A stretch of 15,936 nt of DNA, taken from JBDRGX01 sp043817485 [NCBI: bacterium] (GTDB taxonomy: Bacteria > JBDRGX01). A program made the position numbers and the translations under genes. This document shows positions 1,813-15,936 of this stretch, in pieces (positions within the stretch are counted from its first letter, which is position 1; each line of letters opens with the position of its first letter). The DNA lies in the NCBI GenBank assembly GCA_043817485.1, contig JBDRGX010000066.1, positions 1 through 15,936 on the forward strand, read 5' to 3'. Below the pieces are notes generated by a model. The model was not told the DNA's origin and searched no databases. It was given only the letters and a program-made list of their open reading frames with translations.

Positions 1813-3453
1813 TTATAAAATCTGTTTAATTTTAAAATGTATCTTAGCTAAAGAAAGTTTTTCCATAAAATCTTTTCCTTCACCAAACCCAAAAACTAAA
1901 CTTAAAATTCCAATTTTAGTTTTTTGTTTTATCCCGCAACCATATCCCGATCTTATAATACAAGATAAAGGTTCATAGACATAACCTGTATCCCAAAACA
2001 TAAAAAAAGGTTCTTTTAAATATTCTACAGTAAAAACACTTGTAGTAATTCCTCTAAATTGTCCTTCTCTAAAACCTCTTAAATTTACTGCACCACCTAA
2101 TTTAAAATATTCGGATAAAAAAACTTTTTTTTGTTTTGGTATAAGATATGAAGAAAATAATAATCTAAACATCATTGTTGAATTAAGAACAGAGAAAAAA
2201 TATATTTCTTCATTTATTATTTTTTTTCTAAAATCAGTTTCTTTTTCTAATTTTCTTTTTTCTATATCAAAATTAATTTCTGCTTTAACTCCAGAATTAG
2301 CCATAAATAAATCATTTAAAGAATTATAAAATAAAGTAATACCTGTAATATCTTTTTTTATTTTTATATCTTCATCAATTATTTTTTCATTTCCATATCT
2401 AAATTTTATTTTTGAATAAGCTAACAAATCAAATCCTAATCCAAATTCTTTTTTAATTTGTTTTAATTCTTGTTCCTCATAAATAAAATAATTTCCACTA
2501 AATTCGATTGGAAAAAATAAACCAGTATGAATATTTAAAAAAAAAGTTTTACTTAAAGAATTTTTTTCAAAAAAATAAGAATTTTGTTCTCCTCTTCCTA
2601 AAATATTGCTAATCATTAAATTTAATGAACCGTAAAAATTTTTTTGATTATTTCCAATTAACCCATCAAAAGATCCTAAATGTTTTTCTTCAATCAAAAA
2701 ATCTAAATTTACTAAATTATTTTTTTCATCAAAATTTATTTTATGATCTTTTAAAAAAACAATAGAAGATTTTTCTAAAAGTTTAATTGATTCATTAAAT
2801 TTATAAATTTTAAAAATTTCGCCAGATTTAATTTTTATTATTTTTGTAATAGTTGAATTTTTTGTTTTTTTATTTCCAACAATATTTATTTGTCCAATTT
2901 TGGGAGGGTCGCCTTTATTAATAAGTAAAATGCAAGAGATTGTACCTGTGCTTTTATTTAAACAAAAATTACCTAATGTTATTTTTGTATTTAAAAATCC
3001 TTGTTTTTTATACCATTCTATAATATTTTTTATATCTTTTTCTAATTGATAATCAAAAAATATATTATCTTTTTTGCTCTCTATTAAGAGACGAATTTTT
3101 TTTTCTTCTTGTAAAGAAACTCCTTCAATTATTATTTTTTCTATAACAAAACAAGGGCCTTCTTTAAATAATAAAGTAATTATTTCATTATTTTTTTGTA
3201 TATCAATATTTGTAAGCAAATATCCTTTTTCTTTGTATAAAAAAAGAATTTTTTTAACTGCTAAATTAATAGATTCAAGCGTATTTTCTTTAGAAAAGTA
3301 ATTTTGAAGATATGATGAGGTAAAAACTTTATTTTCTTTAAATTCAATATTTAATGAATAAAAATAGGTTGGAAAAAAACAAATAATAAAAACAAAAAAT
3401 TTAATTATTTTTCCCAAATTTTTGGCAATTTTCCATGTTTTTTTAAAATACAA
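1813..3453 (-). CDS. tamA: Omp85-superfamily outer-membrane protein, TamA/BamA-like
   Basis: A protein of up to 546 residues with an N-terminal hydrophobic segment (about residues 17-33) that looks like a signal peptide. Three POTRA-like repeats follow (about 35-105, 105-182 and 187-257), the last ending in VNLDFLIEEK, a typical POTRA end. The C-terminal half (about 260-546) has alternating beta-barrel strands and the diagnostic Omp85 motif LGGAVNLRGFREG (LRGF at 458-461) that caps the barrel. Omp85 proteins insert beta-barrel proteins into the outer membrane; three POTRAs and the neighbouring tamB favour TamA over BamA. It is the last gene of the hppA-pyrF operon. No ATG is available: the longest frame starts at a TTG (3453) inside the end of pyrF, while TTG at 3417 leaves a better-placed signal peptide and overlaps the pyrF stop by 13 nt. 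The start is therefore uncertain. The last residue is Leu rather than the usual Phe. Confidence 0.8.
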   Translation of the reverse strand: MYFKKTWKIAKNLGKIIKFFVFIICFFPTYFYSLNIEFKENKVFTSSYLQNYFSKENTLESINLAVKKILFLYKEKGYLLTNIDIQKNNEIITLLFKEGPCFVIEKIIIEGVSLQEEKKIRLLIESKKDNIFFDYQLEKDIKNIIEWYKKQGFLNTKITLGNFCLNKSTGTISCILLINKGDPPKIGQINIVGNKKTKNSTITKIIKIKSGEIFKIYKFNESIKLLEKSSIVFLKDHKINFDEKNNLVNLDFLIEEKHLGSFDGLIGNNQKNFYGSLNLMISNILGRGEQNSYFFEKNSLSKTFFLNIHTGLFFPIEFSGNYFIYEEQELKQIKKEFGLGFDLLAYSKIKFRYGNEKIIDEDIKIKKDITGITLFYNSLNDLFMANSGVKAEINFDIEKRKLEKETDFRKKIINEEIYFFSVLNSTMMFRLLFSSYLIPKQKKVFLSEYFKLGGAVNLRGFREGQFRGITTSVFTVEYLKEPFFMFWDTGYVYEPLSCIIRSGYGCGIKQKTKIGILSLVFGFGEGKDFMEKLSLAKIHFKIKQIL

Positions 3454-3641
3454 AAAATTTCATTTCTCATTGTAATAGCAGATTCTCGAGATGCTAAATA
3501 AAATTCTTTTTGACTATAATTAGAATTCATATAAGCAAAAATTATACTTCTGGAAGCATTAATTAAAGCTCCATATCCATCATCATTAAAACAAGGGATT
3601 ATATTTTTTGCATTAGCACCTTGTGTCCCATATCCAGGCAC
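3405..3641 (-). pseudogene. pyrF: pyrF, 3' fragment after a frameshift (C-terminal third of OMP decarboxylase)
   Basis: This frame carries the conserved end of type 2 OMP decarboxylase: PGYGTQGANAKN, the phosphate-binding loop region, then DGYGALINASRSIIFAY. It begins in a different frame from the 5' part (3613-4326). Reading through with one base fewer in the ten-base A run at 3643-3652 gives PNNFFLVPGYGTQGAN, the expected family sequence, and one protein of about 306 residues. The ATG-less start at 3641 is only the first usable codon in the frame, and I do not think this piece is translated independently. Its end overlaps the start of the downstream Omp85 gene. Confidence 0.85.
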
Positions 3642-4326
3642 TAAAAAAAAAATTGTTGGGCATTATACATCTTAATGCTTTTGCATCTTCAGAATGTGTA
3701 GCTCCAACTACTGCTCCTATACAAGAATATTTTTTTTCCCCTTTTAAATCTTTTCCAATTTTATCAATATATTCTGCTATTTTTTCATAAATTTTTTTAC
3801 CATTTGAAGTAATTTGATCTTGTATTTCAACAGAAGAAGGATTAGAAGTTTTAACTAAAATAAATATTCCTTTATTTCGTTTTTCGCAAACTTCTATAAA
3901 AGGAGATATACTATCACTACCAAGATATGGATTAATAGTTATAAAATCTACTTCAAAATCAGAAGAAGAATACGCCAAAGCATATGCTTTGGCGGTATTT
4001 CCTATATCCCCTCGTTTTACATCTCCTATAACCATCAATCCATTTTCTTTAGCATATTTTATTGTTTCTTTAAAAGCTTTTAATCCTTCAATTCCATATT
4101 GTTCATAAAACGCTATTTGTATTTTTACTGCTGGAACAATATCTTTTATTGCATCTATAGTCAATTTATTAAATTCTATAATTGTGTCTTTAATTCCCTC
4201 AAAAAAAATTCCTTTTCTTTTTTTTAAAAAATCTGGTATTTTATCAAAATCTGAATCTAAACCTACAATACAAGGATTTTTTTTTTGATCAATAGACAAA
4301 ATTAGTCTATCTATTATATTTTCCAT
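3613..4326 (-). pseudogene. pyrF: Orotidine 5'-phosphate decarboxylase (type 2), 5' part, frameshifted
   Basis: PyrF converts OMP to UMP, the last step of de novo pyrimidine synthesis, in the cytoplasm. The segment shows the family hallmarks: VGLDSDFDKIP near residue 20 and the catalytic DVKRGDIGNTAKAYA motif with Asp102, Lys104 and Asp107, followed by TINPYLGSD. The sequence and the reconstructed length of about 306 residues fit the longer type 2 subfamily. The frame leaves homology at the 3643-3652 A run, where ...MPNNFF continues as out-of-frame FSAWIWDTRC before a stop. Without the restored C-terminal phosphate-binding loop the product should be inactive. The ATG directly abuts the hppA stop (TAAATG) with no clear ribosome binding site of its own, which suggests translational coupling. 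A second ten-base run (4277-4286) near the 5' end is in frame. Confidence 0.9.
3643..3652. other. Ten-base A run at the pyrF frameshift
   Basis: Ten A on the plus strand (ten T in the coding strand). The 5' and 3' pyrF frames meet here, and nine bases would join them into one protein. It is a candidate site of polymerase slippage, phase variation or sequencing error. Confidence 0.9.
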
Positions 4327-5178
4327 TTATTTAAATAATACATTTTTAACTACAAAAGAAGCAAAAACTAATGATACTGTAGACATCAATTTAATTAAAA
4401 TGTTTATTGCTGGACCAGAAGTATCTTTAAAAGGATCTCCAACAGTATCTCCTATTACAGCAGCTTTATGAGAGAAAGATCCTTTTCCACCATGTTCTCC
4501 ACCTTCTATAAATTTTTTAGCATTGTCCCAAATACCACCAGTATTAGCCATCATTATAGCCAAAACAAAACCAGAACATGTAGCACCTAATAATAAACCA
4601 ATAACAGTTTCTACGCCAAAAATACATCCAGTTAAAACTGGAACAATAATAGCCATAAGCGATGGAATAATCATTTCTTTTTGAGAAAATTTAGTACCAA
4701 TATCTACACATTTTATATAATCTGGCTCTGCTTTATTTTCCATAATTCCAACAATTTCTTTAAATTGTCTTCTTACTTCTATAACAATTTGTTGTGCTGC
4801 TCTTCCTACTGCTTGCATTGTTAAAGCAGAAAAAACAAAAGGTAACATAGCACCAATAAATAAACCAAAAATTATTTTAGGATTAAGCAAAGATAAATTT
4901 AATTGAGTACAACCAAGTAAAGCTACTTGATTTTTATAAGCAGCAATTAAAGCTAATGCTGTTAAAGCTGCAGAACCAATAGCAAAACCTTTTCCTGTAG
5001 CTGCAGTTGTATTTCCTAATGAATCTAAAGCATCTGTTTTTTCTCTAACACTTGGATCTAAATGAGCCATTTCAGCATTTCCACCAGCATTATCTGCTAC
5101 TGGACCATAAGCATCTGTTGCTAAAGTAATTCCTAATGTACTTAACATTGCAACTGCTGCTATAGATATTCCATACAA
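4327..5178 (-). pseudogene. hppA: Membrane pyrophosphatase, 3' fragment after a frameshift
   Basis: This is the C-terminal part of the HppA pump. The frame opens with [19 protein letters not shown] followed by [17 protein letters not shown], one of the strictly conserved cytoplasmic pyrophosphate-binding loops. It continues through [14 protein letters not shown] and the late loop [17 protein letters not shown]. In [10 protein letters not shown], Ala and Gly occupy the positions that are Lys and Thr in K+-independent enzymes, so a K+-dependent enzyme is indicated. It joins the 5' part if one base is removed from the nine-base run at 5211-5219. The ATG at 5178 is internal to a transmembrane region and has no good ribosome binding site, so independent translation is unlikely. 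The stop TAA touches the pyrF ATG. Confidence 0.9.
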
Positions 5179-5191
5179 ACCAAGATTAAAA

Positions 5192-6421
5192 TTAGTGGCT
5201 CCACCAGAGCAAAAAAAAACTAATAAGAATAACTATTCCAACTGTCAATACTGGAATAACTGTTGAAAGCATCCCAGTAGCCAAACCACTAATAAGTAAA
5301 GTAGCTGGACCTGTTTTAGATGCATCAGCCACTTTTTTAGTAGGAGAATAAGTATGTGAAGTAAAATATTCTGTAGATAAACCAATAATAACACCAGAAA
5401 TAAGACCACTTAAAATACTAATATAAATTCCTAAATATTCAATACCTAAAACCATTTTTATTAAAAAATATGCACCTATAGCCACTAAAATTGAACTTAC
5501 AAAAACACCTCTTCTTAAAGCACCAAGTAATGTTCCTTGTGAAGCATTTTCAGAAGTTTTAACAAAAAAAGTTCCAATTATAGAAGATATAATTCCAAAT
5601 CCAGCAAGCAACAAAGGAAATATTGCTCCTTTATAAGAAAGTCCTGTTACTACAGACAAAGCTATTGCTGCAATAATTGATCCTAAATAAGATTCATAAA
5701 GATCTGCTCCCATTCCAGCAACATCACCAACATTATCACCAACATTATCAGCAATAACAGCTGGATTTCTCGGATCATCTTCTGGAATACCAGCTTCTAA
5801 TTTACCTACAAGATCTGCTCCTACATCAGCAGCTTTTGTAAAAATTCCTCCACCTACACGAGCAAATAAAGCAACAAAACTTGCTCCCATTGCTTGACAT
5901 AACATTACATTTGCTATTGATTGAATTTTTGCATTAGTTTCTAAATTACGATAATACCAACTTAAAAGATTGAACCAAAAATTCAAATCAATAAGTGCAA
6001 AGCCAACAACACATAATCCCATTACAGCACCACTTGAAAAAGCAATTTTCAAACCTTTACTTAAACTTGTTCTACAAGCATTAGTAGTTCGCACACTTGA
6101 TTTTGTTGCAATATTCATTCCAAGAAAACCAGCAAGTGCAGACCAAAAACCACCAGTTATAAAAGCAAATGGAACAAAAAAAGTTATATAATCATTTAAA
6201 GCCAAAACCATTAAAATAGTAAAAACAATACCAAAAATTATAGATACTGTGCGATATTGTCTTTTCAAAAAAGCCATAGACCCTTCTCTTACAGCTTTTG
6301 CTATTTTTTTCATTTCTAAAGTACCTTCATCCTGTTTTAATATATAAGACGCTAAAAAAAATGCAGTTCCTAAAGCTAAAACAGGACAAATAAAAATAAA
6401 TACTAAATTCCAATCTATCAT
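5192..6421 (-). pseudogene. hppA: K+-dependent, probably Na+-translocating membrane pyrophosphatase, 5' part, frameshifted
   Basis: HppA hydrolyses pyrophosphate and pumps Na+ or H+ across the inner membrane. The N-terminal 409 residues are visible, with many hydrophobic helices and the conserved loops GGGIFTKAADVGADLVGK (about 190-207), DDPRNPAVIADN and NVGDNVGD (about 215-233), which bind Mg-pyrophosphate. GADLYESYLGS places a Glu at 243, as in Na+-pumping bacterial enzymes; plant-type H+ pumps have Gly there and the Glu a few residues later. With the 3' part (4327-5178) the protein would have about 697 residues, normal for the family. The frame is lost at the T run in ...[10 protein letters not shown], giving LLWWSH and a stop; with one T fewer it reads [20 protein letters not shown]. 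The start is secure: AAGGAGG lies 7 nt upstream of the ATG, and a consensus promoter lies before it. Confidence 0.93.
5211..5219. other. Nine-base A run at the hppA frameshift
   Basis: Nine A on the plus strand (T in the coding strand), inside a transmembrane segment. Eight bases would rejoin the two hppA frames into one family-consistent protein. Confidence 0.9.
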
Positions 6422-6428
6422 TCCAAAG

Positions 6429-6435
6429 CCTCCTT
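6429..6435 (-). promoter_or_regulatory. Strong ribosome binding site of hppA
   Basis: AAGGAGG on the minus strand, 7 nt before the ATG at 6421. It is close to the full anti-Shine-Dalgarno match and fixes the start codon. Confidence 0.85.
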
Positions 6436-6468
6436 TTAAATTAATAAAAAATTATTTTTTTTAAAAGA

Positions 6469-6497
6469 ATTCTATTGAAATAGTTTATTTTTGTCAA
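6469..6497 (-). promoter_or_regulatory. Sigma70-type promoter of the hppA-pyrF-tamA operon
   Basis: Read on the minus strand: TTGACA (6497-6492), a 17-nt spacer, then TAGAAT (6474-6469). The -35 box is consensus, the -10 differs at one position, and the spacing is optimal. Transcription would start near 6462, about 40 nt before the hppA ATG. Confidence 0.75.
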
Positions 6498-6593
6498 TAA
6501 ATATTAACTAATTTATTTATTTTTGTTTTTTAATTTAAACTTATTTTTTAATCAATTTGTTTAAAATTCACATACAAATATTGTATTTAATTA

Positions 6594-6623
6594 TTGACAA
6601 TAATACATTAAGTTATATATATT
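6594..6623 (+). promoter_or_regulatory. Putative sigma70-type promoter for the helicase-nuclease gene
   Basis: Consensus TTGACA at 6594-6599, with TATATA at 6616-6621 (16-nt spacer) or TATATT at 6618-6623 (18-nt spacer). It faces the helicase gene, which would then have an unusually long leader of about 200 nt. AT-rich background makes chance -10 boxes common, but a full TTGACA at correct spacing is less so. Confidence 0.5.
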
Positions 6624-6674
6624 TTTTCCATATTAAAATAAATTTTCAATTTAAAATTTTCAATAAATGCAAAT

Positions 6675-6808
6675 GTTTCTACCAATATTCCGTTCCTAAA
6701 GAAACAAATTAAATAAAATACAATATTTCTACAAAACATTGTAATATTGTAGAAACAGGGGCTTGTCCCTGTCCTTTGTAGTTCGAAGTACGGATAACCG
6801 CTTTACAA
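6675..6808 (+). promoter_or_regulatory. Hairpin-rich leader region upstream of the helicase gene
   Basis: In order: GTTTCT (6675-6680) pairs with AGAAAC (6700-6705). CAATATT (6721-6727) can pair with AATATTG (6743-6749), and TTTCTACAA (6726-6734) with TTGTAGAAA (6747-6755); these two share bases and exclude each other. ACAGGG-GCTTGT-CCCTGT forms a third hairpin (6755-6772). TTGTAG recurs directly at 6747 and 6776, and a less AT-rich tail with TTCGAA follows to about 6808. The region is either a dispersed palindromic repeat or a structured leader; no known riboswitch class is recognised. Together with the two promoters, this is all I see in the 406-bp gap 6422-6827. Confidence 0.45.
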
Positions 6809-6827
6809 GAAAATATAAAAATAACAT

Positions 6828-9008
6828 ATGAATGAAAATATTTTAAAAAAATTAAATAAAGAACAAAAAGAAGCTGTATTTTACAATGAAGGCCATTTTT
6901 TAATTATTGCAGGAGCTGGCACTGGTAAAACAAATACAATCACTTATAAAATTGCTCATTTAATTAATACTAAACAAGCGAAACCAGAAGAAATTTTAGG
7001 ACTTACATTTACAGAAAAAGCAGCTTCGGAAATGCAAACACGAGTAGATGTTTTAATTCCTTATGGTTATTCTGAAATGACTATTAGCACTTTTCATTCT
7101 TTTGGAGATAAAATTTTACGCGAAAATGCTTTTGAAGTTGGATTAAGTTCAGAATATCAAACTTTAAATCAAAGCGAACAATTTTTTTTCATAAAACAAT
7201 TTTTTTTTAAAATTTCTTGTCTTGAAAAATATTATTCTTCAAATAATCCTTATCAACGAATTAATTCTTTATTAAAATTAATAAGTCAAGCTAAAGACGA
7301 AAACATTAGTCCCGAAGAATATTTACTTTATGTTGAAAAAAAAGAAAAAGAATTTGAACAAGAAAAAGATGAAGAAAAAAAACTTTTTTTGAAAAATCAC
7401 ATAATTCAGCAAAAAGAAATTGCTTTTTTTTACCAAAATTATCAAAAAATAATGGCAGAAAACGATAAAATAGATTTTGGAGATCAAATATATCTTTCCT
7501 GTAAAATATTAAAAGAGCATTATTTAATATTAAAAAATTATCGAGAAAAATATAAATATATTTTAATTGATGAATTTCAAGATACTAATTATGCTCAATT
7601 TGAACTAATAAAACTTCTTGTGACTTCTTCCCATAAATTAACAGTTGTTGGAGATGATGATCAAAGTATTTATAAATTTAGGGGTGCTTCTTTAAGCAAT
7701 ATTTTAAATTTCAAAAATGTATATAAAAATGCAAAAGAAATTGTTTTAACTGCTAATTATCGTTCTCCACAATCCTTTTTAGATAATGCTTATACATTAA
7801 TTAAAAATAATAATCCCGAAAGATTAGAACATCAAAATAATATCAATAAAAAACTTATTTCCCAAAAATCTTCTTGTGAAAAAATTAAATATCTTCCATT
7901 TAATTCTCTTGATGAAGAATCTGATGCAGTAGCAAAAGAAATTCAAAATTTAGTTGAAAATAAAAAATACAAATATAATGATATTGCTATTTTAGTAAGA
8001 GCACATAAAAATGCAGAAATTTTTATACAAAGTTTGAATATGCTTGGAATTCCATATCAATTTGAAACACAAAAAAAATTTTTTAATCAGCATGAAATTA
8101 TACTTTTAATTTCCTTTATTAAAACTTTATCTGATTTTAACAATAATATTAGTTTTTATTCATTATCTCGTTCTTCAATTTATAATATTACAATATTTAC
8201 ATTAGTAAATTGTAATTCAGTATCTAAAAATAGACATAAATCTTTATTTTATATTTTTTCTCATTTAAAAGAATTTCCTGAAATAGATATTTCCCCAGAT
8301 GATAATGAAAAAATAAAAAAAATAGTGAAAAATATAGAAGAATATAATTTGCTTTTAGAAACATCTTCTATAGGACAAGTTATGTATCAATTTATTGAAG
8401 AGTTTTTAAAAAATTTATTACAAGAAAAGACATTAGAAAATGAAGAAAAAATGAAAAATATTGGTAGTTTTTTTAATATTATTAAAAGGTTTGAAACTCT
8501 TTTTACTTCTAAAAATATTTGGCAATTTGAAGAATATTTAGATGGACTTATTAACTTTGATAACCGTATAGAAAATTCAAGTGATATTCTTGAAATAGAT
8601 GCAATTAATATTTCAACTATTCATAAAGCAAAAGGATTAGAATTTCCAGTAGTATTTATGGTTAATTTAATAGATGACCAATTTCCTTGTTCTGCAAAAG
8701 GAGAAAATAGTATTTCATTACCTTCTGATTTATTAAAAGATTTACCTATAAAAAGTAATCATATTTCAGAAGAAAGAAGACTTTTTTATGTTGGAATGAC
8801 TCGAGCAACAAAACTTCTTTATTTTACATATGGGCCTGATAAAAGTAAAAAACGAGGAGGAAATAAAGTAAGTAGATTTATTTGTGAATCTCTTAATATT
8901 ACACCTGTTTCTTCTACAAATTCAAAAAATTGTGTTCAAGAAATTATTGAAAAATATAAAGAACCACAATCTCCAAAAATAAACATAATAAAAAAAAAAT
9001 ATATCTGA
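6828..9008 (+). pseudogene. UvrD/PcrA-family DNA helicase, helicase part of a frameshifted helicase-nuclease
   Basis: A superfamily 1A 3'-5' DNA helicase with all classical motifs: Walker A AGAGTGKT (28-35), the Ia region LTFTEKAASEM, TISTFHSFG, Walker B IDEFQDTN (Asp248-Glu249), VVGDDDQSIYKFRG (motif III), LTANYRSP (IV), ISTIHKAKGLEFPVVFM (V) and EERRLFYVGMTRA (VI). The frame leaves homology after the helicase core at a ten-base A run (8990-8999), ending KKKYI and TGA. With one A removed it continues into a RecB-family nuclease domain (to 9726), giving a protein of about 965 residues, probably for double-strand-break processing or repair. The helicase core alone is complete, so this piece could still be active. 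The start ATG at 6828 has no clear Shine-Dalgarno sequence. scpB follows 35 nt after the nuclease end. No gene symbol is given because uvrD, pcrA and addA-like roles cannot be separated. Confidence 0.9.
8990..8999. other. Ten-base A run at the helicase-nuclease frameshift
   Basis: Ten A in the coding strand, exactly between the helicase core and the nuclease domain. Nine A would restore one open frame. The junction reads KKNISEISHHKISDYNSCP in the restored frame. Confidence 0.9.
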
Positions 9009-9078
9009 AATAAGTCATCATAAAATTTCTGATTATAATAGTTGTCCATTAAAATACAAATATATTCATATTTATAAA

Positions 9079-9726
9079 ATGCCATTGAATAATAATTCTG
9101 CAATGGTTTATGGAAATGTAATGCATAAAATTATTTATGAATATTATTTAAAAAAGAAATCAAAAACACCAATTTCTCAAGAAAATTTATTAAAAATTCT
9201 TGAAAAAAATTGGAGAAATGAAGGTTTTTTAAGTAGAGAACATGAAGAAGCAAAATTAAAACAAGCAAAAATATCTTTAGAAAATTTTTATAAAAATGAA
9301 GAAAAAATAAATTATGCTCCACAATATTTTGAACATACTTTTAATTTTATGCTTGAAAAAACAAAAATTACTGGTAGAATAGATAAAGTAGAAATTTTTG
9401 AAAATGAAATAAAAATTACAGATTTTAAAACTTCGATAATAGAAGATCAAGAAAAAGCAAATAAAAAAACAGAAGAAAGTCTACAACTTTTTATTTATGC
9501 TTTAGCTTGGAAAAATATTTATGGTAAAATTCCAAATATTATTTCTTTACATTATTTAGAATCTGATATTATTGGTATTAGTAAAATAACAGAAAAAAAA
9601 TTAATAAAAACAGAAGAAAAAATAAAAGAATGTATTGATGGCATTAATTCTCAAAATTTTTCAGCTATTAAAAATAGTTTTTTTTGTAATACATGTGCTT
9701 TTAATGGATTTTGTTCAAAAAATTAA
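9079..9726 (+). pseudogene. RecB-family PD-(D/E)XK nuclease domain with probable Fe-S cluster, 3' part of the helicase gene
   Basis: The segment matches the nuclease domain fused to UvrD-like helicases and AddB (PDDEXK_1 family). Counting from the ATG at 9079: GNVMHKI with His16, a Glu in YFEHTF (85), GRIDKV with Asp102, ITDFKTS with Asp115 and Lys117 (the D-x-K catalytic pair), and QLFIYA with Gln136 and Tyr140. Three cysteines at the end (CNTCAFNGFC; 203, 206, 212), plus one in SDYNSCPLKYKY just upstream of the ATG in the same frame, make the four-cysteine arrangement seen in AddB and Cas4 Fe-S nucleases. Because the first cysteine lies before the ATG, translation from 9079 would lose it, supporting one fused gene with the helicase. 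The ATG also has no ribosome binding site. Confidence 0.87.
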
Positions 9727-12647: not shown

Positions 12648-13439
12648 ATGTTAAATTATAATAATTTATAAAAAATAAATGAAGGAAAAACAAAAATAAT
12701 TTATTCAAATTCAGAAAATCAAAAAACTGTTTTTATGGTTTTTAAAGATGATATTACTGCTGGAGATGGAATAAAACATGATATTATGCAAGGAAAATCT
12801 TTAATAGATTGGCAAATCAATAAAGATATTTATGAATTATTAAATAAAAAAAATATACCAACTCATTATATTGACTCACCAGAAGAAAAAGTTTGTTTAG
12901 TTAAAAAATTAAGCAAAAAAATTAATTTAGAAGTAGTTTCAAGAAGAGTTGCTACGGGTTCTATTTTAAAATGGGAAAAAATAGAAGAAGGAGATTTATT
13001 TTCTCCTTTAGTCACCCAATTTCATTATAAAGATGATTTCCTTCATGATCCAATGTTAAGTGAAAAATTTATTAATTATTTAATTAAAGAAAAAAAATCA
13101 TCTGAATTTGCCAAAATGAAAGAATTAAATATGCAAGTTTTTGAAATTTTAGAAAAATCTTTTGCTTGTTTTAATATTCAGTTAATTGACATTAAAATAG
13201 AGTATGGAATTATTGATGAAAAAATTTATGTAATTGATGAAATTACTGGCGGATCATTCAGATTATGGCCATATTTACATCAAAATCCCAATTTTAATCA
13301 AAAAAATGTTTTGTTAGAATTAAATCCAAAAGGAAGATTAGATAAAGATACTTATAGATTTGGAGAAAGTTTAGATACAGTAAATTCAAAATTTAAAGAA
13401 ATTGCAAAAATAACAGAAAAATTCAAAGAATTAGCATAA
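12648..13439 (+). pseudogene. purC: SAICAR synthetase, PAICS-like type, interrupted by an in-frame stop at codon 8
   Basis: PurC joins aspartate to CAIR with ATP to give SAICAR in purine synthesis. The start at 12648 has AAGG 7 nt upstream and reads MLNYNNL, then TAA (12669-12671), then KINEGKTKIIYS in the same frame. EGKTK is the conserved ATP-binding start of the family, so the stop interrupts the real N-terminus. The rest is intact: FKDDITAGDG, SRRVATGSILKW, KDDFLHDP, DIKIEYG and RLWP, then DKDTYRFGE. The total would be about 263 residues. The pattern (RRVATGS, a KDD.. DP block, FEILEKS, RLWP, DK..YR) resembles the SAICAR domain of animal PAICS more than E. coli PurC. The next ATG (12735) would delete the EGKTK motif. 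TAA is the normal stop of neighbouring genes, so a variant genetic code is unlikely. This is a real nonsense mutation or a sequence error. Confidence 0.87.
12669..12671 (+). other. In-frame TAA within the purC N-terminus
   Basis: Codon 8 of purC. Homologous codons lie on both sides in one frame, so this is a substitution-type interruption (for example AAA to TAA), unlike the homopolymer frameshifts elsewhere in the window. Confidence 0.85.
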
Positions 13440-14609: not shown

Positions 14610-14637
14610 TTTTCATACCACAAGTCACATTCAAACG

Positions 14638-14699
14638 CTAACTATGTTGGTTTTGTCATCTCCTTCTTACCGCCTGTTATTATTTTGAAGGCAAGTTAG
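14638..14699. repeat. Nested inverted repeat in the dppB-dppC gap
   Basis: CTAACT (14638-14643) pairs with AGTTAG (14694-14699), and inside it CCTTC (14662-14666) pairs with GAAGG (14687-14691). The stretch is clearly richer in G+C than the flanking genes and non-coding. It resembles a small palindromic repeat or an mRNA structure between two co-transcribed genes. Confidence 0.4.
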
Positions 14700-14720
14700 T
14701 AGAAATAGGAAAATAATGTT

Positions 14721-15711: not shown

Positions 15712-15936
15712 ATGAATAAACAAGAAGCAAAAATTTCAATTGAAAAATTAGTTGAGAAATATCAAAGAGTTGTAGAAGTTGGTAAGATAAAATCCTATAA
15801 CGAGGCACAAACTCGCAATGAATTTATTGAGCCGCTTTTTGAATCTCTTGGTTGGGATATGAGAAATCTCACGATAGACAATGAAGTTACCACAGAAGAA
15901 AATGTTTCTGGTGGCAGGGTTGATTTGGCTTTCCGC
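15712..15936 (+). CDS. N-terminus of a probable type IIG restriction-modification enzyme (3' end outside window)
   Basis: Seventy-five codons run to the right edge without a stop. The start ATG has GAGGA 9 nt upstream. The sequence KLVEKYQRVVEVGKIKSYNEAQTRNEFIEPLFESLGWDMRN, given here in pieces because of its length (LVEKYQR, SYNEAQTRNEFIEPLFE, LGWDMRN), then GGRVDLAFR, resembles the N-terminal PD-(D/E)XK nuclease region of Eco57I-like fused nuclease-methyltransferases and of some HsdR-type proteins: a Glu in the E..TR..FI.P helix, and an Asp in GGRVDLAF that would precede an E-x-K pair beyond the edge. Codon use (CTC, ACC, CGC, GCC-like third bases) is visibly less AT-rich than in all other genes of the window, consistent with recent acquisition. 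The methyltransferase part is not visible, so the subtype is inferred. Confidence 0.6.
   Translation, partial: MNKQEAKISIEKLVEKYQRVVEVGKIKSYNEAQTRNEFIEPLFESLGWDMRNLTIDNEVTTEENVSGGRVDLAFR

What the first reader, a model, noticed from the sequence alone, without database searches (positions are those of the whole stretch)
3405..9726. Three conserved genes broken by the same kind of lesion: one extra base in a 9-10 base A/T run
pyrF (run 3643-3652), hppA (5211-5219) and the helicase-nuclease (8990-8999) each lose frame exactly at a long A/T homopolymer, and each is restored by deleting a single base. The flanks on both sides keep full family motifs, so the genes have not decayed otherwise. Runs of equal length elsewhere stay in frame (4277-4286 T10 in pyrF, 7200-7208 T9 in the helicase, 2537-2545 A9 and 3096-3104 T9 in tamA), so not every long run is affected. 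The explanations are a systematic +1 homopolymer error in the assembly, real slippage mutations, or genes that rely on RNA polymerase slippage to make a fraction of full-length product, as reported for poly(A) tracts in Buchnera and Blochmannia. If real, it would be a striking case of tolerance of frameshifts in housekeeping genes.
Basis: partly seen in the sequence, partly recalled or inferred. Interest (0 to 1): 0.75.

Follow-up and report, generated by a model that had tools for sequence, protein, structure and literature searches.

The report
Three genes frameshifted at A/T runs
In a very AT-rich stretch of bacterial DNA, three otherwise intact genes lose their reading frame at the longest A/T runs and a fourth has an early stop, most simply a run-length error in the sequence or young mutations, with no direct sign that the cell tolerates the breaks.

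Summary
pyrF, hppA and a UvrD-type helicase-nuclease each change frame, in the same direction, inside an A/T run of 9-10 bases, and both parts of each match their families. Of 7 coding A/T runs of 9-10 bases 3 are broken, of 61 runs of 7-8 none. In pyrF the spacing between two conserved motifs is 19 codons plus one base; six of seven intact homologues counted have 19 residues, so one surplus base is likelier than two missing. Nothing found here speaks specifically for tolerance by slippage; dnaX-type -1 frameshifting has the wrong direction. The broken share is about eight times that reported for Blochmannia vafer (8 of 153, PMC3017870). Consensus error (0.45) and young mutations in an eroding genome (0.35) cannot be separated here; the purC stop and the choice of genes favour the second. 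No reads, own genome or close relative were available. Interest is low to moderate.

The parts
3643..3652 (-). T10 (coding strand) run in pyrF where the frame changes
   Evidence: 19 codons + 1 nt between conserved motifs; N part matches TIGR02127 3-213, C part 215-258
3613..4326 (-). pyrF (OMP decarboxylase, TIGR02127 type), N-terminal part
   Evidence: 226.9 bits
3405..3641 (-). pyrF C-terminal part with the PGxGxQG and NxSR stretches, other frame
   Evidence: (34.4 bits); no ribosome-binding site seen before its GTG
5211..5219 (-). T9 (coding strand) run in hppA where the frame changes
5192..6421 (-). hppA (membrane pyrophosphatase), N-terminal part
   Evidence: PF03030 positions 1-376
4327..5178 (-). 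hppA C-terminal part, other frame
   Evidence: PF03030 positions 379-645
8990..8999 (+). A10 run in the linker between helicase and nuclease domains where the frame changes
6828..9008 (+). UvrD/PcrA-type helicase part
   Evidence: PF00580 at 9-299 (profile 1-270 of 271), PF13361 at 305-668 (1-347 of 350) of 726 aa
9010..9726 (+). PD-(D/E)XK nuclease part, other frame
   Evidence: PF12705 positions 2-246 of 247; in 59 genomes of a distant group 38 of 47 matched places lie in open frames of 900 aa or more
12648..13439 (+). purC with ribosome-binding site and ATG, interrupted at codon 8
12669..12671 (+). in-frame TAA in purC; the family match starts at the second codon after it
   Evidence: residues 2-246 after the stop match TIGR00081 8-271
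4277..4286 (-). A10 (coding strand) run in pyrF that stays in frame
7200..7208 (+). T9 run in the helicase that stays in frame
2537..2545 (-). T9 (coding strand) run in tamA that stays in frame
3096..3104 (-). A9 (coding strand) run in tamA that stays in frame

Best explanation
The three frame changes are one-base length errors that the consensus sequence acquired at its longest A/T runs (sequencing or assembly), in genes that are intact in the organism. Shown: the frame changes lie only in runs of 9-10; no other break was seen in the three genes; in pyrF the surplus is most likely one base. Inferred: that it is technical and not biological; the sequence alone cannot prove it. On this reading the purC stop is a further consensus error at the border of an A run, or a separate real lesion.
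For: Length dependence: 3 of 7 coding runs of 9-10 broken, 0 of 61 of 7-8. One recognised lesion in each of three conserved genes, both parts matching their families. Codon-position composition is alike on both sides of each break (GC3 0.10/0.10 pyrF, 0.10/0.07 hppA, 0.08/0.05 helicase-nuclease). The broken share is far above that of slippage-prone symbionts: B. vafer 8 of 153 long tracts; chance of 3 or more of 7 at that rate 0.004 (rough, since that paper counts 'polyA' tracts and its frameshifts lie in polyA or polyT). In a survey of 1106 complete genomes the authors expected homology-validated single frameshifts to be sequencing errors rather than genuine indels (PMC3711429, passages). Long-read errors are predominantly homopolymer indels (PMC12007338, PMC9262707, passages); 454 indel errors rise with run length (PMC4719071, passages).
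Against: In the nanopore assembly analysed in PMC12007338 homopolymer-linked errors are chiefly deletions, whereas pyrF shows a surplus base and all three shifts have the same sense; nanopore R10.4 consensus is said to resolve most runs below 11 bp (PMC9262707); 61 runs of 7-8 show no error here. The purC TAA is not a plain run-length change. The platform is unknown. The four broken genes look like ones that a host-dependent cell can lose, the six open neighbours like ones it needs (small numbers, my judgement).
Confidence: 0.45

Rival explanations
1. Real, young slippage mutations: the organism is losing these genes, and the longest A/T runs, being mutational hot spots, are hit first. pyrF and purC (nucleotide synthesis), hppA and the helicase-nuclease are on the way out, as in a recently host-dependent bacterium.
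For: A fourth gene, purC, carries an in-frame TAA. GC 24.9%, GC3 5-12% over 12 coding pieces, and no clear avoidance of long runs: 7 runs of 9 or more against a mean of 8.6 (95% range 6-11) in synonymous shuffles. Broken genes are nucleotide, energy and repair genes; tamA, scpB, PBP1A, oppB, oppC and the visible part of tamB are open frames. Homopolymer indels are described as possible first steps of gene erosion in symbionts (PMC3017870).
Against: No second lesion was recognised in any of the genes; the largest gap (6422-6827) gave no family match in its three longest open stretches (the other gaps were not searched). A broken share of 3 of 7 is very high. There is no independent evidence that the organism is a symbiont; its lineage is unknown.
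Confidence: 0.35
2. Tolerated frameshifts: RNA polymerase slips on the runs and a fraction of the transcripts gives full-length protein, as reported for Buchnera and Blochmannia.
For: Run type and length (A/T, 9-10) are those at which slippage is reported; a review quotes 12-50% corrected transcripts for genes of two endosymbionts (PMC5009743, passages). A Sodalis RNA study reports two single-base insertions in C tracts that correct frameshifts (PMC7067036, passages). Both parts of each gene are well kept.
Against: A genome-wide study in Buchnera found insertions prevailing at homopolymers (151 of 157 insertions; 16 of 57 deletions) and no case in which a transcription error restored a frame (PMC5574713, passages); with one base too many the common slip goes the wrong way. 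It cannot rescue the purC stop. Conservation of the broken sites could not be tested. [quoted passage not shown] here no clear avoidance is seen (small sample).
Confidence: 0.12
3. Programmed frameshifting or gene fission: two products by design, above all helicase alone and helicase-nuclease, since that break lies in the linker after the helicase domains.
For: The helicase break falls between the end of the best helicase match (residue 685 of 726) and the start of the nuclease match. Of 47 nuclease matches in a distant group 9 lie in shorter frames of 233-710 aa (contig ends and separate nucleases not sorted out).
Against: All three need a +1 move, so -1 ribosomal slippage of the dnaX kind has the wrong direction; RNA after the runs folds no better than shuffles (z -0.27, 0.69, 1.20; pseudoknots not predicted); no ribosome-binding site seen before the downstream parts; 38 of 47 nuclease matches lie in long frames, 27 of 29 hppA places in frames of 534-830 aa without stop, 11 of 11 pyrF places in frames of 285-636 aa without stop.
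Confidence: 0.04

Closest known systems
Frameshifts in poly(A)/poly(T) tracts of Blochmannia and Buchnera genes (PMC3017870, passages; Tamas 2008 and Wernegreen 2010 known only as cited there, both not held)
   Same: Very AT-rich DNA, indel in a 9+ A/T tract, gene otherwise intact
   Different: There a small share of tracts is broken (8 genes against 153 tracts in B. vafer; 4 against 134 and 4 against 114 in two others), and some sites are conserved between species; here 3 of 7, with no relative and no RNA, and a nonsense codon in a neighbour
Homopolymer indel errors of draft genomes and metagenome assemblies (PMC9262707, PMC12007338, passages)
   Same: One-base changes at long runs that fragment otherwise intact genes
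   Different: In the nanopore assembly analysed there the homopolymer errors are chiefly deletions; here a surplus base is indicated in pyrF
Young pseudogenes of recently host-restricted bacteria (for example Sodalis glossinidius, PMC7067036, abstract start and passages; lesion types recalled)
   Same: Inactivating lesions spread over several genes
   Different: No older, multiply damaged pseudogene recognised in this window; lineage and life style unknown

Membership tests
Slippage-rescued homopolymer frameshift (Buchnera/Blochmannia type) | Single indel within an A/T tract of about 9 or more, gene otherwise intact | tested here: met
Slippage-rescued homopolymer frameshift (Buchnera/Blochmannia type) | Broken site conserved between populations or species, without decay | tested here: inconclusive
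   No close relative found: genome contigs (one 27% hit), viral contigs, plasmids and phages
Slippage-rescued homopolymer frameshift (Buchnera/Blochmannia type) | Mixed-length transcripts or full-length protein | not testable with these tools
   no RNA or peptide data
Programmed -1 ribosomal frameshift (dnaX type) | Second frame reached by a -1 move | tested here: not met
   all three transitions are +1 in translation
Programmed -1 ribosomal frameshift (dnaX type) | Stimulating RNA structure after the slip site | tested here: not met
   three segments of 93-94 nt, z -0.27, 0.69, 1.20; pseudoknots are not predicted by this tool
Young pseudogenes | More inactivating lesions in the same neighbourhood | tested here: met
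   TAA at codon 8 of purC
Young pseudogenes | Relaxed selection in comparison with a close relative | not tested
   no close relative available
Consensus homopolymer error | Lesions confined to the longest runs | tested here: met
   3 of 7 runs of 9-10, 0 of 61 runs of 7-8; the purC stop is the exception if it is of the same origin
Consensus homopolymer error | Reads show other run lengths | not testable with these tools
   no reads; no genome held for the window

The most novel reading that the evidence does not exclude
A bacterium outside the known insect symbionts keeps several core genes (pyrimidine synthesis, membrane pyrophosphatase, a repair-type helicase-nuclease) permanently out of frame at A/T runs, with close to half of its longest coding runs in the broken state as in this window, and lives on the fraction of full-length product made by slippage; for the helicase the run at the domain border would set the ratio of helicase to helicase-nuclease.
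Probability: 0.08. Interest if true: 0.8.

Novelty: new member of a known kind. Interest (0 to 1): 0.27.

Why it matters
If technical, it warns that metabolic gaps (no pyrF, no purC, no hppA) read from such AT-rich contigs would be false. If real, it is a snapshot of gene loss beginning at mutational hot spots, and its direction and choice of genes would test how far slippage can carry core genes.

Tried and rejected
Rejected: a changed meaning of stop codons for the three breaks, since the family match goes on in another frame; of the 12 coding pieces, 11 end in TAA and one, the helicase part, in TGA. Rejected: gene fission with re-initiation (no ribosome-binding site seen before the downstream parts). 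Rejected: -1 programmed frameshifting (direction; folds). Not established: under-representation of long runs (small sample). Repeat and composition scans gave nothing used here.

Led nowhere: the window's own genome is not held. The one genome-contig scan, with the helicase part, found a single distant locus (27% identity) in a genome listed with 300,000 bases, so sister genomes could not be compared; its six peptide patterns were short and could miss genus-level relatives. The eight viral-contig scans found one contig with a distant hppA (47% and 62% in the two halves; L002 and L010 are the same contig). hppA of plasmid-collection records (20 records, below 60% identity) gave four of the five homologues. 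Whole-window searches in plasmids and phages found nothing. Genomes of the distant group served as a frame control only: pyrF family in 2 of 20 genomes, three places without stop; hppA in 28 of 59 genomes, 27 of 29 places in frames of 534-830 aa without stop, the other two in frames of 100 aa and of 168 aa with a TAA; nuclease in 44 of 59, 2 of 47 places with a stop inside (among the 38 in frames of 900 aa or more, two lie in one frame and one has a TAA); pyrF N part in 11 of 59, 11 places without stop. The pyrF C row of the alignment was in a wrong frame and is not used; one search replaces it; there L005 gave no row and L024 fell outside the motif count. Solved-structure searches only confirmed the families of purC, pyrF and hppA.

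Full report
The window is 15936 bases with 24.9% G+C. Gene content by family search: part of a TamB-like gene (very weak), a BamA/TamA-like gene, pyrF, hppA, a UvrD-type helicase followed by a PD-(D/E)XK nuclease, scpB, a PBP1A gene, purC, two ABC permeases of the oligopeptide/nickel type, and the start of an HsdR-like gene (the last is below its Pfam cut-off). No tRNA, and no Rfam match at gathering score. No genome is held for it, and its lineage stayed unknown; the outer-membrane genes speak for a two-membrane cell (recalled).

Check of the observation. pyrF: the N part matches TIGR02127 positions 3-213, the part in the other frame 215-258. hppA: PF03030 positions 1-376 and 379-645, and an alignment with five intact homologues shows both halves well kept. 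Helicase-nuclease: PF00580 and PF13361 in the first frame, PF12705 positions 2-246 in the second; a distant relative holds both in one frame, and 38 of 47 matched places in 59 genomes of that distant group lie in open frames of at least 900 aa, while the window's parts have 726 and 238 aa. All three transitions have the same sense.

One too many or two too few? In pyrF the distance from the GAT motif to PGxGxQG is 58 nt, 19 codons and one base; of seven intact homologues counted six have 19 residues and one has 20. That supports a surplus of one. In hppA and the helicase the site lies in a loop or linker of varying length and the question stays open.

Chance. Of 68 coding A/T runs of 7 or more, 7 have 9-10 bases and 3 of these are broken; none of the 61 shorter ones is (Fisher p 0.0007). 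Synonymous shuffling gives a mean of 8.6 runs of 9 or more (95% range 6-11) against 7 seen, so long runs are neither clearly avoided nor in excess. GC at third codon positions is low on both sides of each break.

A fourth lesion. purC has an AAGGA ribosome-binding site and ATG at 12648; codon 8 is TAA (12669-12671); the family match starts at the second codon after it (TIGR00081 from position 8), and the first later ATG, GTG or TTG in frame (12735) lies behind the EGKTK stretch without a ribosome-binding site. So 4 of the 9 genes whose whole length is in the window are interrupted (tamA, pyrF, hppA, helicase-nuclease, scpB, PBP1A, purC, oppB, oppC; tamA has only TTG candidates as start codon, read).

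What it is. Three main readings remain. Consensus error: explains the restriction to the longest runs, the single lesion per gene and the well-kept flanks, and has, in my judgement, the better prior for a sequence of unknown quality; it explains the purC stop poorly and, if the platform were nanopore, the sense of the shifts poorly (PMC12007338, passages). Young mutation: explains everything including purC, and the broken genes are of the kind that host-dependent bacteria lose (recalled), but asks for an unusual organism of which nothing else is known; the largest gap between genes showed no recognisable remnant. Tolerated frameshift: in Blochmannia vafer eight genes are frameshifted against 153 long tracts (PMC3017870, passages); at that rate three or more of seven has a chance of 0.004. 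In Buchnera, transcription insertions prevail at homopolymers and no restored frame was seen (PMC5574713, passages), although a review cites 12-50% corrected transcripts in two symbionts (PMC5009743, passages) and RNA-level corrections in C tracts are reported for Sodalis (PMC7067036, passages). A surplus base needs a deletion or a two-base insertion, so the commonest slip does not help.

Programmed frameshifting of the dnaX kind fails on direction, and no fold better than shuffles follows the runs. The helicase break at the domain border is the only one of the three with an evidently sensible truncated product; I note it as the boldest reading but have no evidence beyond its position.

Verdict. 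Observation confirmed and extended. Best guess consensus error (0.45), then young mutations (0.35), then tolerated frameshifts (0.12). Each is a known kind of event. Reads would settle it at once.

Noticed in passing
12648-12671: purC: ribosome-binding site and ATG followed by an in-frame TAA at codon 8; the SAICAR synthetase match starts right after it.
   Followed up: yes
1690-1745: GC-rich (0.61) intergenic stretch in a 25% GC window with two tight hairpins (MFE -21.9, z -4.0); 24 bases of it have no exact match in viral contigs.
   Followed up: partly
6748-6790: A second GC-richer intergenic stretch (0.47) with a short ACAGGG/CCCTGT stem (z -1.6).
   Followed up: partly
14612-14705: Intergenic stretch of higher GC (0.36) between the two permease genes, fold no better than shuffles; not searched for genes.
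   Followed up: no
3405-4327: hppA and pyrF abut without a gap, and the tamA frame overlaps the end of pyrF: a compact minus-strand arrangement, so early stops in the first two genes could affect tamA. tamA has only TTG candidates as start codon.
   Followed up: no
15712-15936: Start of an HsdR-like gene, weak match to PF04313 (E 0.00034, below cut-off), cut by the window end.
   Followed up: no
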